Source: Apoderus coryli
Lineage: Eukaryota; Arthropoda; Insecta; Coleoptera; Attelabidae
DNA: 64,000 nt
Direction: 5' to 3'
Assembly: GCA_911728435.2 (NCBI GenBank)
Contig: OU452201.1
Location: 10,664,001-10,728,000 of the forward strand
Shown here: positions 24,301 to 63,440 of the stretch, piece by piece
Layout of the letters: the number at the start of each line of letters is the position of its first letter
Numbering within the stretch: position 1 is the first letter of the stretch
The notes under the pieces: model-generated
Seen by the model: the letters and a program-made list of their open reading frames with translations, nothing else
Databases searched by the model: none
Told to the model about the DNA's origin: nothing
Program-made: the position numbers and the translations under genes

Positions 24301-27300
24301 TTTAAAGTTTGATTTACAATCTGTTTTTTCAGTCTCTGATTCAAATTGTGGTATTTCTCTTTGTATTGTACCACTTTTTATGTGCCAGTAATATGGTCCG
24401 TCATTATCTAGGAAATAAACAATATAAATAAATTTATTTTCAGGACCGTTTGAACTTTCATTTGGAGAAGAAGATGTTGTATATATCAGGAGATTTTTTT
24501 TAACTGCTTTTCTTCTAGGTGTAGTCGTTTTCTATTTCATTGCGTTTTCAAATATTATTTATATTATGTAAGTGCAACTCATTAATGATTTTCCCTCATA
24601 AAAAGGAAAAACGTTAATAGTACGAGGCACGTTTTTTTAGTAAGTACCGTTTTGCGATTCCGCCGCCGCAGCGCTACGGTCGGCGTTCCGCGCTGGTTAC
24701 CTATATCTCTTGTCTAAGCACTGACGCCATTACAGTCTGATTCCTCATTGTATACGTTGTTTACTGAGTGTTTAAGATACCTCCGACAATCGTGAGTCCC
24801 GCCCATTGTGAAGTACGGGCTGTTATACGATTTCTTAGTGCTAAAGGCGTAAAACCGATCGATATTCATCGTGAGATCTGTGAAGTTTACGGATAAAACA
24901 TTATGAGTGATGGAATGGTAAGGAAATGGGTGAGAGCATTTAAAGATGGCCGCACAAATGGGCATGATGAAGAACGGAGTGGGCGTCCTTCGGTCGTTAA
25001 TGAAGATTTAGTGCAGAAAGTGGAGGAAAAGGTGAGAGAAAACAGACGCTTTATAATTTCATCAATGTGCGACTGCTTTCCTCAATATTCTCGTAGTGTT
25101 TTGTATCGCATTGTGACCGAGAACATGAATTACCGGAAATTGTGTTCACGTTGGGTTCCAAAAATGTTGACGGATTTGCACAAAACCCAACGTTTAGGCA
25201 GTGCATTGACTTTCCTTGAGGGGTACCACAATGAAGGTGAAGATTTTTTAGACCAAATTGTTACTGGTGACGAAACATGGGTGGCCTACGTCACACCAGA
25301 ATCGAAACAACAATCCATGGAATGGCGACATTCATCATCACCCAAAAGAGTGAAGTTTAAGCAAACAATTTCTGCCCGGAAAATCATGTGCACAGTTTTT
25401 TGGGACAGAAAAGGAGTATTGCTAGTGGAGTTTCTGCCTCGTAATGAGACAATCAATGCAGCGTCTTATTGTGAGACATTGAACAATCTGCGTCGTGCAA
25501 TCCAGAACAAAAGACGTGGCAAGTTGAGTAAGGGTATCGTTTTGCTGCATGACAATGCCCGTCCACATGTGGCTAATCGGACCAAAAATCTCATCAAATC
25601 TTTTAAATGGCAAACTCTAGATCATCCTCCATACAGCCCTGATCTGGCGCCCAGCGACTACCATTTGTTCCTGCACTTGAAGAAACACCTGGGTGGTCAG
25701 CGTCTTCAAAACAATAACGAAGTCAAAACATTTGTGATACAGTGGTTAACAAGTCAGGCGGCAGAATTTTATGAGGAGGGTATTCAAAAACTGGTGCCAC
25801 GTTATGACAAGTGCGGAAATTATGTAGAAAAGTAGATTAAGGTACAGGCTTTCATGTAAAAATAAAATTATTGCGATATCTTTGCACGTCTTTTTTTAAT
25901 TCTAAAACGGAACTTACTTAAAAAACATGCCTCGTATATCGGACATGAAGATCATGATGAACTTGGCATGTATTTATTTCACAGGGTGAATCACCACTAA
26001 CCAGACGGATTATTACAAAAAAACACTTCGATGTTTTTTTAATCTTTCATCACTGAGGAATCTGTTTATTTTGGCGGATATCGCACGTATATCTAATTAC
26101 CGAAAATATCTCACCTTCATGTTTTTCCCATCCAGGAGGCAATTTTAATTCACTTTCCCATTCTTTTTCCGGTGTACTTGTTTTATCTATTAATTTTTCC
26201 GGAGGCTTTTGGTCATTTTTCTTAACTGGTATTGCATATAAATCATTTGTAATTTTGCCAACAATATGGGGGACGGAATCGTTATTGGTTATCCTTTCAC
26301 ATAAACTACAAAAAAACATAACATGAACATTGCAGCAGACGATAGCGTTTCCGGGAAACTAACCGTGTTCAGTACCAACAATTTTTTACTGTGAGTGTAC
26401 TTACGTGGCAGAATAAGGCTATTAGTATGCCTACTTGCTTGCACCACAAAAGTACATTCAAAGTAGCTACAAATCATATTGACAATTTTGTTAGCAAATA
26501 AATATTTGGTTCTATTATTATTATCATCATGCATCATTTTACTACTTGCTAAAATGGGTTCTATTGTAAAAATATATTCCTTACATGATGGAAAAGAGAG
26601 AACGCGCCCTATATTACTAGATTCTAATCAAAATTATATGTTGCTTTATTGTAAACGTATATGCATTATATACAATTTAAATTTAACATAAATTTAAAAA
26701 AAAAGTACATACTTGTCCCAAACAGATGTATTATCACTTTCAGCCTTCTCAGAAAACGCATCATTACCATTCCATTCTAAATCCCTATAACAGAATTATA
26801 TTCATAAAAATTTAGAGTTTTTAGAAGCCGATAGATACGGGCAACAGTCTAACTGATTAACAATAATTTAAAAATTAAAGATGCCCCAAGAACATTTGTT
26901 TAATATTATTTGCATATACAGGATTTTGAAAATTATCGGTAAAAACTTCAAGGGTATATTTTTAAGTCTTTTCCTATGAGCCGCAAATCATCTCCGTTGG
27001 ACCTATAGCTCCCGCCTCCCCACCATACTCCCCAAGGTGTAAAAAACGTATTAATTCCATAATTTGTAGCCCTGTTTATTCTAAAATTAACTAAATCGCT
27101 ATCACTATATGGTTTTTTACCCTAATATTTTAAGGAGATCCGGAACCCCTCTTCAACAACGATAATCAATAGATATTAAGTAATTAAAAATGACATTATT
27201 TCTCGTATCATTGGGTTACAAGCTTAAATCACCAACAAATGGAAATTGAGCTCCTTTACATCATGTTCTAATAGGATACTATTCTTAAGCCTCGATATCA

Positions 27301-43212: not shown

Positions 43213-43320
43213 GCTAGTACCATTGTTCCTTATAAAGAATGCTAGTACCTTCGTCTTTAGAAATACATTGCTAGTACATTGTCTTTACAAACCTTTTAAA
43301 GACAATGTAGTACTAGTAAC
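43213..43320 (+). repeat. Three ~28-bp tandem GCTAGTAC units plus an inverted copy
   Basis: GCTAGTAC starts at 43213, 43241 and 43270, a spacing of 28 and 29 bp. Each is followed by a variant of CATTGTCTTTA. The third unit forms a hairpin with AAAGACAATGTAGTACTAGT (43299-43318). The array lies 250-360 bp upstream of the OFD1-like start codon. Confidence 0.6.
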
Positions 43321-47049: not shown

Positions 47050-47065
47050 TACGTTGTGTTGTACC

Positions 47066-47094
47066 CACAGATCTAGGAAGTTTCTAGATCTGTG
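47066..47094. mobile_element. 29-bp palindromic micro-element, copy 1
   Basis: CACAGATCTAG, the spacer GAAGTTT, then CTAGATCTGTG. It is bounded by perfect 8-bp direct repeats GTTGTACC (47058-47065 and 47095-47102). The identical 29-mer occurs at 62960-62988 with a different 8-bp duplication. An 8-bp TSD is the size made by hAT and P-type transposases. Confidence 0.8.
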
Positions 47095-50900: not shown

Positions 50901-53900
50901 GTTGTTACTCAAAAATTTTATTAAAAGTAAAACTTACGAATTCACTTACTTATACTGGTGTTGTCACCTTCCTCGAAATTTAGCTTCTTTGATACGAATG
51001 TTCGCTCCATTATATTGTTAAATCTTGAGTTATTTTTAAAACTGCTGTTTCTAGACATACCTTTCTTTATCTTTCTAGTGAAATATACACACGAACAAAC
51101 TTCCGCAGTGTGCCAATAAGTTTTTACAAAATCTACCTCGTCATTCGATACTAATCTATTGTTGAATACTTCAGTCAATTCATTTAAAATTTTATGCACA
51201 AGACACTGCAACTGTTTTCTATGCGTAGTTGGCTTTACAAGTTGTCTTCCATTCTCTTGTTGATTGTGACCTTCGTCATCAGATGAAAAATAATCTAAGC
51301 TCCTTTTGGTAACTGTCTCCAACATACTCTCAATTTTTTTATAGAAAAACATTTCTTCAGAATTATCTTTAATGCTATTGTACAATTTTTGGCCAATTAA
51401 TGCTCCTAACCGGGGATGAACTTTTTGAAAATTTACCTCAGAAAATCTATAGTCTTCCATATAGCTATTTATCAACAATTCTAATTGTTTAATTTCATTT
51501 TCTAATATTTTAAATACATTTTCACCATTTTTGCATAAAATAATTAGAATGTTGTTCGAGATGCGATTTGCAAACACATGACATGCTTTGTCCGCCGCAA
51601 TTACAGGTTCAAATTCATTTTTCTGATCTCCTGAACCATTAAGTGAATTAGAATTGTTTAAGTGACATGCAGATAGTGCATTACAAAGATGTGAGATTGG
51701 ACTCAATTTGTCAGTCTTATTTTCTTTTTCAATGTTGTCATAAAGGTTTTCATATCGTTTCTTCAGATGATTCTCGAGTAGATTTAAACCCTCTTCTGAT
51801 GACATATCTACAAAACTATTTAAAAATGGCCAATACTCTTTCCAACTGACATCATAATATTTAGCCAGTTTTTTTCCGATTCTTTCTAAGCCCTTTGTAG
51901 GATCTTTAAATCGCAATGTCGACATACTGGCTACGGCTTCGGGTGGTTTTTTGCCATGGGGTGAATTGAAATTTAATAATCTAGGTGGAGTTTTCCAAAT
52001 TTTTCGAAACTGTTCAGCACCTTTTTTATCCATTGGACCAGCGTATGCATGAATTTCCATTTGAGGGCTCAACGGATCGTTATTTAATACCTGAAAATTT
52101 AGCATTAATATTAATTTTTGACCTTTCTTGTTGAAATCAATGGCGATAGAGCTGATAAAAAAAACAACGACAAATATACATATTTCAAAACATTTTATAA
52201 AAAATAACTAAATAATTCTGTACATATTACTAGAATTTGATTTCATTTGTCGCCAGCTACACTTTGTAAAGTAGGGAAAAATAATCTGATAACACAATAA
52301 AACGTGTACATATGAATTACGTATAACGAGAAAATCAAGAAGAAACATAAAATACCATTCTCGAACAAGAACGTATCAATCCAGAACATCGTCCAAAAGA
52401 ATTTTCATTTACTTAGCCTCATCTTACAACCATATAATATCACCATTAAAAAGACTACACTTTCCCAAACTACTGTTTTCCAGCTTTTAAACCCTGAGTT
52501 TCTCAAAAACTGAAAAGCCACCATTCTGCGTAACCAGTTATTTTTTTGTCTATATGCCTACTACACTCGATCCATAGCGGTTGATTCAGATTTCGTAACA
52601 AAATATCTACAGTATTTTCCTATCGGTCTCACCCTTTGACATACCTGGTGGATTAGTTTTTCTGTAAGACTCTCACTTGAATTACTTCTGGAAATTTTTA
52701 CTTGGTATTTGCCATTTTCGAAATATTTAAATAAATATCTTAAGTTTGTATATGAAAATATCATAGGGTTCACAAAAACACATGAACATAATTAAAACAG
52801 GTATCGAGGTATCAATTATTGATGGGGGGTAGATCGACCGAGACAAGTGGTGGTAACGCTATGCAAATTCAGTAGGCAGTGCCTCGCTTCTCTCAGATTA
52901 GTGATGCACGGTCCGAATATTACCATCAGAATTTCCAGTTATATTACGTAATATTACCTCTACCATCCGGTAACGTTACATTGTTACTGTAATATTTCCG
53001 AAAAATGTCGTTAATTTTCGGGGTAATATTCCCGGTAATATTCGCTTCAATATTACGTTAAAGTTGGTAGCTAACGGTCTTACTGCTTGTTTCAACATGC
53101 TGCAACACGTCTAGTGATAGCTGTTGCTTAAGTTCTTACGCCATCGCTATATGTGAAGCTCGTTTACATACGAACTAATCGGAAATTCTTACACAATAAC
53201 CGTGCCGAAATGAAAAATGTTGCATTAATGACCCCATCAACAGTTACAAATACTTTTAATGAAACTGAATCTGATTTATCCGAGGATTTGTCTGCGGATG
53301 AGGGTTTAGCAAATAATGACTAAATATTTATTTTTACCGACTGAAAACTATTTTTATCATATGTACCTATTCTTTGGCCTATCTAAGAATTGTGTGAACT
53401 ATATAGTTTCAGATTTCAGTTTATTTTGTGTTTTATTGAGTTTTTAGAGCCATATAGGTAATTGAGGCAATTATTGTTTAATTTGTTAAAGCTTCTTTGC
53501 ATATTGTAAAACCAGCTTTTTCTAAGTTGTTCAGCAATATTACCTAAAATTACGTAATATTTCCAATGTTCTTACCAAAAAATAAATTACCGGTAATTTT
53601 GCATCACTATCTCAGATTATGTTATGAAGGATAATTTGACTCGTTGACAAAGATTTCTGGGTACTTTTAATATTTTACAAGATGCTAAAGACATTCCGCT
53701 CAAATGAATATTTGTTGTTGTGTTAAGAAAACTCGTACATTAATTTATATCTTTTACAGTATATGAGACGATTAATATTATTTCAATTTCTCATTCATTC
53801 AAATGATATCAAGAATTTTTTTAATTCTCAACCTGTATTTATATTTCCCTCAAATAATAAAAATCATAACGGATATGTTTTAACAGGGTCGGAGAGAAAT

Positions 53901-62617: not shown

Positions 62618-63440
62618 TTACTTAGTTTTCCTAGGGCCTCCCATACCGTCAAGTTGTTGCTTAAGAGTTTTGAGGTCACTGTCAGGTATGTATCGGACTT
62701 CGTCGTGGGATTCTTCATGGGGTACAACTTGTACAGTAACTCCAGCTGGGGTACTAGCTTCCAATGCCCTTAGTACTACCGGTAGCTAAAAATATGTCGT
62801 TTAGTAGAAAATAACTGCAAAATCGCTTTTCACGGAATTTCTCCTATATGCATATATTTCCAATTATTTTGTGAGTACTACGAGATGACGATACTCAATA
62901 TTTGTAAAACCTCCCGGAGCAAAAAAGTTGAATACTTATATTATAAACTTGGTTATCAACACAGATCTAGGAAGTTTCTAGATCTGTGGTTATCAACGCA
63001 CTTTAAAATTACCTGTACTGATGCTACATCTGTTATTTGTATTGTTCTAGCATAAGTTTTCAGATTATAAGTTGCATTTACAATTTCACTTTTGGGCTGG
63101 TATGTAGTAATTTTTATCGTTTGTGGTGGTAAAGCCCAGCAATCTTCAACGTTTATATCCATATTTTTCAAAAGTTTATGCAGAAACTTTTGGTAATTTT
63201 CTAGTATTGGATAGTCGTGTCCTTTTAACTGTATATTTAACGTATCGTACAACGGGATTTTTGATTGCATTTCCTAAAACGATAGAAATTACATTCTCAA
63301 TATCAAATAAAGACTTGATATACCTTCAAATACTCTGGTTCATATATATTGCTGATTCTAGAGCTCTTTTGAATATTTCTGTTGCACACAATCACTCTAG
63401 TTAAAATCGAATTTGAAAAAAGCTGTTTTGCAGAATTCAT
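62618..63440 (-). CDS. mRpL48: Mitochondrial large-subunit ribosomal protein mL48
   Basis: This is a component of the mitochondrial 39S ribosomal subunit with an S10-like fold. Three exons (minus strand) join in frame: 63324-63440, 63013-63273, 62618-62785, giving 181 residues. The N-terminus (MNSAKQLFSNSILTRVIVCN) is basic and hydroxylated with few acids, as expected of a mitochondrial targeting peptide. The conserved core follows: YEPEYLK, then LYDTLNIQLKGHDYPILENY, WALPPQTIKI and TYARTIQI. The C-terminus has PDSDLKTLKQQL, matching the acidic-helical end of MRPL48. Length is slightly under the roughly 210 of vertebrates. Intron 2 carries a 29-bp palindromic insertion only 25 bp after the exon 2 donor. 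The gene looks functional. Confidence 0.92.
62960..62988. mobile_element. 29-bp palindromic micro-element, copy 2
   Basis: It is base-for-base identical to 47066-47094 (TIR CACAGATCTAG, spacer GAAGTTT). It is bounded by the perfect 8-bp repeats GTTATCAA (62952-62959 and 62989-62996). It lies in mRpL48 intron 2 near the donor site. Confidence 0.8.

What the first reader, a model, noticed from the sequence alone, without database searches (positions are those of the whole stretch)
47066..47094. A 29-bp 'micro-transposon': two identical copies, each with its own 8-bp target duplication
The same 29-mer (11-bp inverted repeats CACAGATCTAG around the 7-bp spacer GAAGTTT) occurs at 47066-47094 in a LINE 3' UTR and at 62960-62988 in mRpL48 intron 2. 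The flanks differ (GTTGTACC twice; GTTATCAA twice), so these are two independent insertions, not one duplicated segment. Known hAT/P-type elements make 8-bp duplications, but MITEs are rarely below about 80 bp. An element that is almost only two termini would test how little sequence a transposase needs. Alternatives are end-joining or excision debris from a longer element, though an identical 29-mer at both sites makes that less likely. The AGATCT core is a BglII site, but the duplications argue against adapter contamination.
Basis: partly seen in the sequence, partly recalled or inferred. Interest (0 to 1): 0.85.

Follow-up and report, generated by a model that had tools for sequence, protein, structure and literature searches.

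The report
P-element excision scars, not micro-transposons
The two identical 29-letter palindromes look like healed wounds where a P-type jumping gene once sat and was cut out, leaving short stubs of its two ends; the same genome holds many more such scars and a long relative that carries the transposase gene.

Summary
In detail: the 29-mer lies at 47066-47094 and 62960-62988, each between perfect 8-bp duplications. The "micro-transposon" reading is not supported. The genome has 45 such N7 palindromes at 38 independent sites, 31 with perfect duplications, but they belong to a wider set of short remnants. Of 99 examined hits of the end sequence CACAGATCTAG on one contig, 59 lie in 40 short sites (11-37 bp, 35 sequences); the window's 29-mer is 2 of the 40, both in one amplified repeat. 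Long relatives share these ends and 8-bp duplications; a 6,228-bp one encodes P-transposase domains (THAP, P HTH, RNase H, GTP-binding insertion). Of 69 short remnants read, 52 are simply one end joined to the other, with at most 18-19 nt of either. This matches P excision in Drosophila, where a staggered cut leaves 17-nt tails that end joining seals. The 29-mer is a join of maximal microhomology ("AG"). The model predicted a common 30-mer with spacer AAAAGTTT (note); a later search found it in 35 of 50 listed 30-bp places. These are P-type excision footprints.

The parts
47058..47065 (+). left copy of the 8-bp target duplication GTTGTACC
47066..47080 (+). 15 nt left behind from the transposase-side ('right') element end, variant CACAGATCTAGGAAG(GGGG)
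   Evidence: matches ends of L044, L049, L052, L055, L104; join enumeration
47079..47080 (+). shared microhomology AG at the join
47079..47094 (-). 16 nt left behind from the other ('left') element end, CACAGATCTAGAAACT(CGAG)
   Evidence: matches ends of L045, L051, L053, L055
47095..47102 (+). right copy of the target duplication GTTGTACC
62952..62959 (+). left copy of the 8-bp target duplication GTTATCAA
62960..62974 (+). 15 nt from the transposase-side element end
62973..62988 (-). 16 nt from the other element end (AG 62973-62974 shared)
62989..62996 (+). right copy of the target duplication GTTATCAA
46060..47049 (+). host of scar 1: LINE reverse-transcriptase ORF (the scar lies just 3' of it)
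   Evidence: PF00078 E 2.2e-11
63009..63273 (-). host of scar 2: mRpL48-like exon (boundary near 63009 inferred by eye from a GT donor); the scar lies just downstream in the intron
   Evidence: PF00338 E 1e-16

Best explanation
Each 29-mer is an excision footprint of a P-superfamily DNA transposon. The element inserted with an 8-bp target duplication (consensus GTTATAAC). Its transposase later cut it out with a long stagger: at the junction on one strand and well inside the end on the other. Each flank was thereby left with a 3' tail of roughly 17-19 nt of terminal sequence. End joining paired the two tails at a short homology (AG), trimmed and sealed them, leaving TSD + 15 nt + 16 nt (2 shared) + TSD. 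Shown here: duplications, matching ends, a transposase gene in a long relative, diversity of joins, an upper limit on retained end sequence, recurrence of the high-microhomology joins. Inferred: the cut, the tails and the repair pathway (microhomology end joining, perhaps of the polymerase theta type).
For: (1) 38 independent 29-bp sites, 31 with 8/8 duplications; the target consensus of those 31 is GTTATAAC, with 0.19-0.63 bits per position inside the 8 bp and at most 0.14 outside. (2) Long elements with these ends and perfect 8-bp duplications: L047 (2127 bp), L051 (1374), L052 (2391), L053 (1939), L055 (1947), L054 (3294 bp, both flanks TGAATAAC) and L104 (6228 bp, GTTGTAGT twice). L055 has exactly the end pair (GGAAGGGGG and AAACTCGAG) that the window's 29-mer needs. 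(3) L104 encodes THAP (2.3e-9), Tnp_P_element HTH (2.5e-19), RNaseH_N (6e-37), GTP-binding insertion (1.2e-43), RNaseH_C (2.3e-22); PDB hit 6p5a, P transposase, 3.5e-17. (4) Census on C1: 40 short sites, 35 sequences, 11-37 bp, 31 with perfect duplications. (5) Of 69 short remnants (after merging double listings and leaving out 4 copies of a fossil scar) 52 are pure end-to-end joins; the longest exact stub is 18 nt (right, 3 remnants) and 19 nt (left, 5 remnants). (6) Of 120 possible joins (summed over three right-end variants, stubs 11-17 nt) only 4 have 2-nt microhomology: the two common 29-mers, a 28-mer and a 30-mer. (7) That 30-mer was predicted in writing before the N8 search, which found it in 35 of 50 listed places; 16 of 20 fetched have 8/8 duplications. 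(8) Published P excision junctions have the same anatomy, and one 2-nt microhomology join makes 14 of 66 by my sum (PMC2895639).
Against: No site was seen occupied by a long element in one genome or paralogue and scarred in another. The longest stubs are 18-19 nt, not 17: five remnants carry exactly 19 nt of the left end (...CTCGA), which a plain 17-nt tail does not explain unless 2 nt were added. 17 of the 69 remnants leave bases that exact matching does not explain, 13 of them more than 3; by eye most of these are single base changes within a stub, but L065, L097 and L006:1576-1620 have real filler. Of 17 C1 scar sequences tested, 14 are pure joins and 7 of those 14 have no microhomology at all. 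The short remnants were picked with a limit of 60 bp and a TCTGTG-like end, so longer stubs would have been missed. L085 has a 62-nt left end followed by a repeat of its upstream 8-mer, though that 8-mer is also how the element normally continues (counted as a long-element end). L104 itself has GGAAGGGGG at both ends, so it is not the type that gives the 29-mer. In the C1 census no AAAAGTTT 30-mer occurs among 40 sites. Length counts other than N7 and N8 did not complete by the search machine.
Confidence: 0.95

Rival explanations
1. The 29-mer is a true micro-transposon (ultra-short MITE) mobilised in trans by the P transposase.
For: 18 independent sites carry the identical GAAGTTT form and 11 the AAAGTTT form; the 30-bp AAAAGTTT form recurs too; clean 8-bp duplications.
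Against: The three recurrent forms are the maximal-microhomology joins of three existing end variants. Short remnants as a whole are diverse, 35 sequences at 40 sites, from 11 bp up. Half-scars of 11 bp have only one end. P elements of D. melanogaster need at least 138 bp and 216 bp of end sequence (passage of PMC1562414). A double 17-nt stagger cannot be cut out of 29 bp (inference).
Confidence: 0.03
2. Extreme internal deletions made by interrupted copying during gap repair, rather than direct joining of the tails.
For: Interrupted gap repair after P excision is described (PMC2895639 passages); shorter, internally deleted relatives exist here.
Against: Interrupted copying should leave a spread of end lengths. 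Here exact stubs stop at 18-19 nt per end, and opposed pairs of intact end sequences among the 100 hits listed show no length between 37 and 436 bp (one 45-bp remnant lies elsewhere, L006).
Confidence: 0.015
3. A hAT element is the source.
For: 8-bp duplications with T at position 2 and A at position 7 fit hAT too (hAT preference recalled).
Against: The family's own transposase is P-type, with the GTP-binding insertion. hAT excision leaves little or no terminal sequence (recalled).
Confidence: 0.005

Closest known systems
Drosophila melanogaster P-element excision junctions (P{wa} repair products, PMC2895639 Table 1)
   Same: 8-bp duplication, stub of one end, stub of the other end, duplication; short microhomologies; one join recurs many times; some filler
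   Different: Different element family and ends; natural scars in a genome assembly instead of laboratory events in Rad51-deficient flies; left stubs reach 19 nt instead of 17; the fly table also has many joins that remove most of both tails
P superfamily transposons (Drosophila P, zebrafish Pdre2/THAP9, Anopheles P elements)
   Same: THAP domain, P-type HTH, RNase H with GTP-binding insertion, 8-bp duplications
   Different: A family with its own ends, CACAGATCTAG plus GGAAGGGGG (or AAAGGGGG, AAAAGGGGG) and AAACTCGAG; not compared with Repbase or other repeat libraries
Short Paramecium IESs (26-28 bp peak, PMC3464196)
   Same: Very short transposon-derived segments
   Different: IESs are excised as units with help of a domesticated PiggyBac transposase; the 29-mers are what is left after excision
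Ultra-short MITEs
   Same: Inverted repeats and target duplications
   Different: No conserved unit size or interior; best explained by repair, not by transposition of the unit

Membership tests
P-element superfamily (source element) | N-terminal THAP domain | tested here: met
   PF05485 in L052 and L054 and L104
P-element superfamily (source element) | P-type HTH and RNase H with a GTP-binding insertion | tested here: met
   PF12017, PF21787, PF21788, PF21789 in L104; 6p5a by sequence
P-element superfamily (source element) | 8-bp target duplication and terminal inverted repeats | tested here: met
   L047, L051, L052, L053, L055, L104; L045 has 6/8
P-element superfamily (source element) | Subterminal inverted repeats | not tested
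   not looked for
P-element superfamily (source element) | GTP-dependent transposition | not testable with these tools
   biochemical
P-type excision footprint (the 29-mers) | Flanking 8-bp duplication | tested here: met
   38 of 45 perfect, 31 of 38 independent sites; both window copies perfect
P-type excision footprint (the 29-mers) | Only terminal stubs of both ends retained, limited to the tail length (17 nt in D. melanogaster) | tested here: inconclusive
   Stubs limited, but to 18-19 nt, in remnants picked below 60 bp
P-type excision footprint (the 29-mers) | Varied joins, with recurrence of microhomology joins | tested here: met
   but 7 of 14 pure C1 joins tested lack microhomology
MITE / micro-transposon | Copies share one size and one interior | tested here: not met
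   11-37 bp, 35 sequences at 40 sites
MITE / micro-transposon | Retains the end sequences needed for transposition | not testable with these tools
   29 bp against 138+216 bp needed by D. melanogaster P (passage); the need of this family is unmeasured
hAT | hAT transposase in the long relative | tested here: not met
   only P-type domains found in the four L104 pieces scanned

The most novel reading that the evidence does not exclude
This genome holds several hundred inherited P-type excision scars that outnumber the surviving elements: a natural, genome-wide record of germline break repair. Its transposase cuts up to 19 nt inside the end, a different stagger from the 17 nt of the Drosophila P element.
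Probability: 0.35. Interest if true: 0.6.

Novelty: new member of a known kind. Interest (0 to 1): 0.45.

Why it matters
It removes a candidate for the smallest known transposon. It shows how excision scars can mimic an ultra-short MITE family, duplications and all, because microhomology makes independent scars identical. Once recognised, such scars are a natural data set: they bound where the transposase cuts, show which joins the germline makes, and mark past insertion sites of a P family. Repeat annotation that counts such palindromes as elements would be wrong, and species in which P elements cannot be assayed could still be studied this way.

Tried and rejected
Adapter or BglII contamination: rejected, since 45 genomic copies lie between their own duplications. 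Viral contigs: no match to the N7 palindrome. Papers containing the 11-mer: 13 listed, none with a transposon in its title (listing only). My first version of the footprint model (17-nt tails with a 5-nt AACTT overlap, note) was wrong: the long elements have other bases there. It was replaced by the AG join. The Paramecium IES parallel (passages) was considered for a self-excising micro-element and dropped once long elements and varied joins appeared. Papers on natural genome-wide P excision scars: none recognised in the listings; these are three word searches of open-licence papers, no proof of absence.

Row handling: one search lists 80 rows; one search merges double listings to 73 and sets aside 4 copies of a fossil scar, leaving 69. 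These 69 include the N7 loci, which were chosen for being 29 bp, so they are not a fair length sample; the C1 census is fairer but needs one intact 11-mer. The census covers 99 of the 100 hits listed (the last was not fetched), out of 1,830 counted; its 40 sites are not all independent (four AATATACC half-scars, L002/L003, and L065/L069 share their duplications). In one search I fetched 20 of the 35 listed AAAAGTTT places. In one search only 17 of the 35 C1 sequences were typed in; 3 of the 17 (the 18-, one 32- and one 37-bp) were not found by the enumeration, which does not cover stubs under 11 nt. My notes gave L006's second remnant as 46 bp from 1575; it is 45 bp, 1576-1620. No N6 search was made, so the predicted 28-mer (seen once, L064) is untested genome-wide.

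Full report
Observation. A scan of the window found no other clear scar and no long relative (one weak 51-bp match there looks like chance).

Genome-wide N7 copies. The window is C10:10664001-10728000 of an unnamed 428-Mb assembly. It has 45 places of the form CACAGATCTAG-N7-CTAGATCTGTG and 0 in the reversed control. All 45 were read (loci). Eight share their flanks because they sit in an amplified repeat, so there are 38 independent sites: 31 have 8/8 duplications, 4 have 7/8, 2 have 6/8, 1 has 4/8. Spacers over the 38: GAAGTTT 18, AAAGTTT 11, AAAAGTT 3, six others once each. Over the 31 perfect sites the target consensus is the palindrome GTTATAAC, with 0.19-0.63 bits per position inside the 8 bp and at most 0.14 outside. 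These are products of independent transposition events.

They are not one element. The end sequence CACAGATCTAG alone occurs 903+927 times against 32+24 for the reversed control. I examined 99 of the 100 listed hits, covering the first 17 Mb of C1. 59 hits lie in 40 short sites bounded by duplications (0 mismatches 31, 1 mismatch 8, 2 mismatches 1); 25 are ends of long elements, at 17 places by my count; 7 belong to a fossil scar inside the element; 8 are other. The 40 short sites are 11-37 bp long and have 35 different sequences; 6 are 29 bp. The window's 29-mer accounts for 2 of the 40, both copies of the amplified repeat. Scaling 40 per 99 hits to 1,830 hits would give roughly 700 short sites, an extrapolation from one contig. 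A 45-bp remnant lies next to a 29-bp one in L006, a 33-bp one lies in L022.

The parent family. Long elements with these ends and perfect 8-bp duplications are L047 (2127 bp), L051 (1374), L052 (2391), L053 (1939), L055 (1947), L054 (3294 bp, with a mariner-type ORF inside) and L104 (6228 bp, GTTGTAGT twice). L045 (2356 bp) has 6/8. L046/L048 (436 bp, same flanks) and L050 (1503 bp) also have 8/8 but depart from the family ends after the first 11-17 nt on one or both sides. One end reads CACAGATCTAGAAACTCGAGAG; the transposase-side end reads CACAGATCTAG followed by GAAGGGGG, AAAGGGGG or AAAAGGGGG. L052 and L104 have GGAAGGGGG at both ends; L055 has the pair that the window's 29-mer needs. L052 and L054 keep a THAP exon. 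L104 carries THAP, the P-type HTH, both RNase H parts and the GTP-binding insertion, and matches the solved Drosophila P transposase 6p5a at 3.5e-17. Whether L104 is active was not tested.

How the 29-mers arise. P transposase cuts 17 nt inside the inverted repeat on one strand (PMC7776569, passages), leaving 17-nt 3' tails on the donor flanks (PMC2895639, passages and section 7). In that paper's Table 1, from Rad51-deficient flies, joined products read duplication, stub, stub, duplication in many isolates, and one 2-nt microhomology join accounts for 14 of 66 by my sum; another 14 use a long imperfect microhomology that removes most of both tails. Here the remnants are the same kind of object. 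Of 69 remnants, 52 are pure joins of the two ends, 4 leave 1-3 unexplained bases and 13 leave more; the longest exact stub is 18 nt on the right and 19 nt on the left. L067 is 34 bp, readable as 17+17. For stubs of 11-17 nt there are 120 products summed over the three right-end variants; 97 have no microhomology, 19 have 1 nt, 4 have 2 nt: the GAAGTTT 29-mer, the AAAGTTT 29-mer, a 28-mer and an AAAAGTTT 30-mer. The two 29-mers are the two commonest N7 classes. Microhomology is not obligatory: of 14 C1 scars that are pure joins, 3 have 2 nt, 4 have 1 nt and 7 have none.

A prediction. Before the N8 search I noted that the third end variant (AAAAGGG) must give a common 30-mer with spacer AAAAGTTT. 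The search found 51 places, 0 in the control; of the 50 listed, 35 have exactly this spacer (recounted). I fetched 20 of the 35: 16 have 8/8 duplications, 3 have 7/8, 1 has 4/8; L108, L109 and L111 share flanks and L110 shares one of them, so about 17 are independent. In the C1 census this 30-mer does not occur among the 40 sites, and the predicted 28-mer occurs once (L064).

Open points. Five remnants (L022, L056, L059, L061, L087) retain exactly 19 nt of the left end, so the stagger may be 18-19 nt here, or two bases may be added during repair. No occupied counterpart of a scarred site was found. The species was not identified. Filler in L065/L069, L097 and L006:1576-1620 would fit templated insertion but was not analysed. 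L085, with a 62-nt left end followed by its own upstream 8-mer, is ambiguous.

Verdict. The micro-transposon is an excision footprint of a P-superfamily element, made identical at many sites by microhomology. The kind of event is known from laboratory flies; what is new to me is its abundance as natural scars in a genome assembly, for which I recognised no report in the listings.

Noticed in passing
52899-53609: 711-bp segment with inverted ends TAGTGATGCA and a perfect 8-bp duplication TCTCAGAT; could be a non-autonomous hAT-type element.
   Followed up: partly
43275-43309: 13-bp-arm hairpin flanked by TAGTAC on both sides, in a stretch with several CTAGTAC motifs.
   Followed up: no
24903-25835: ORF of 310 aa matching mariner-type transposase (PF01359, E 1.2e-21).
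   Followed up: no
L052:1396-1420; also L044, L047, L049, L053, L054, L055, L079, L103: A 25-bp excision scar (CACAGATCTAGAATCTAGATGTGTG, a variant in L053), in most copies between GTAAATAC-like duplications, carried as part of the P family downstream of the THAP exon: apparently a scar that spread with its host element.
   Followed up: partly
L063:301-332 and 1459-1776: A 32-bp scar whose downstream flank is repeated exactly (300 of 300 bases) 1.1 kb on, the second copy beginning inside a right element end; looks like a duplication from aberrant transposition or repair.
   Followed up: partly
L072:2491-2501, L092:121-131, L101:121-131, L083:301-311, L095:121-131: Half-scars: a single 11-bp end CACAGATCTAG between 8-bp duplications (GGCCTAAT in L072; AATATACC in the other four, with 1 mismatch in L083 and L095).
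   Followed up: partly
L110:21-50: AAAAGTTT 30-mer with GTTTGACC on the left and its reverse complement GGTCAAAC on the right, unlike L108, L109, L111 with the same left flank; possibly a local inversion.
   Followed up: no
L002, L003, L005, L007, L011, L014, L018, L026: Eight copies of one 29-bp scar with the same near flanks: left flanks of five agree over 1,500 bp (0-3 mismatches to L003), the other three pass 15% mismatches at about 800 bp; the repeat seems to have spread after the excision.
   Followed up: partly
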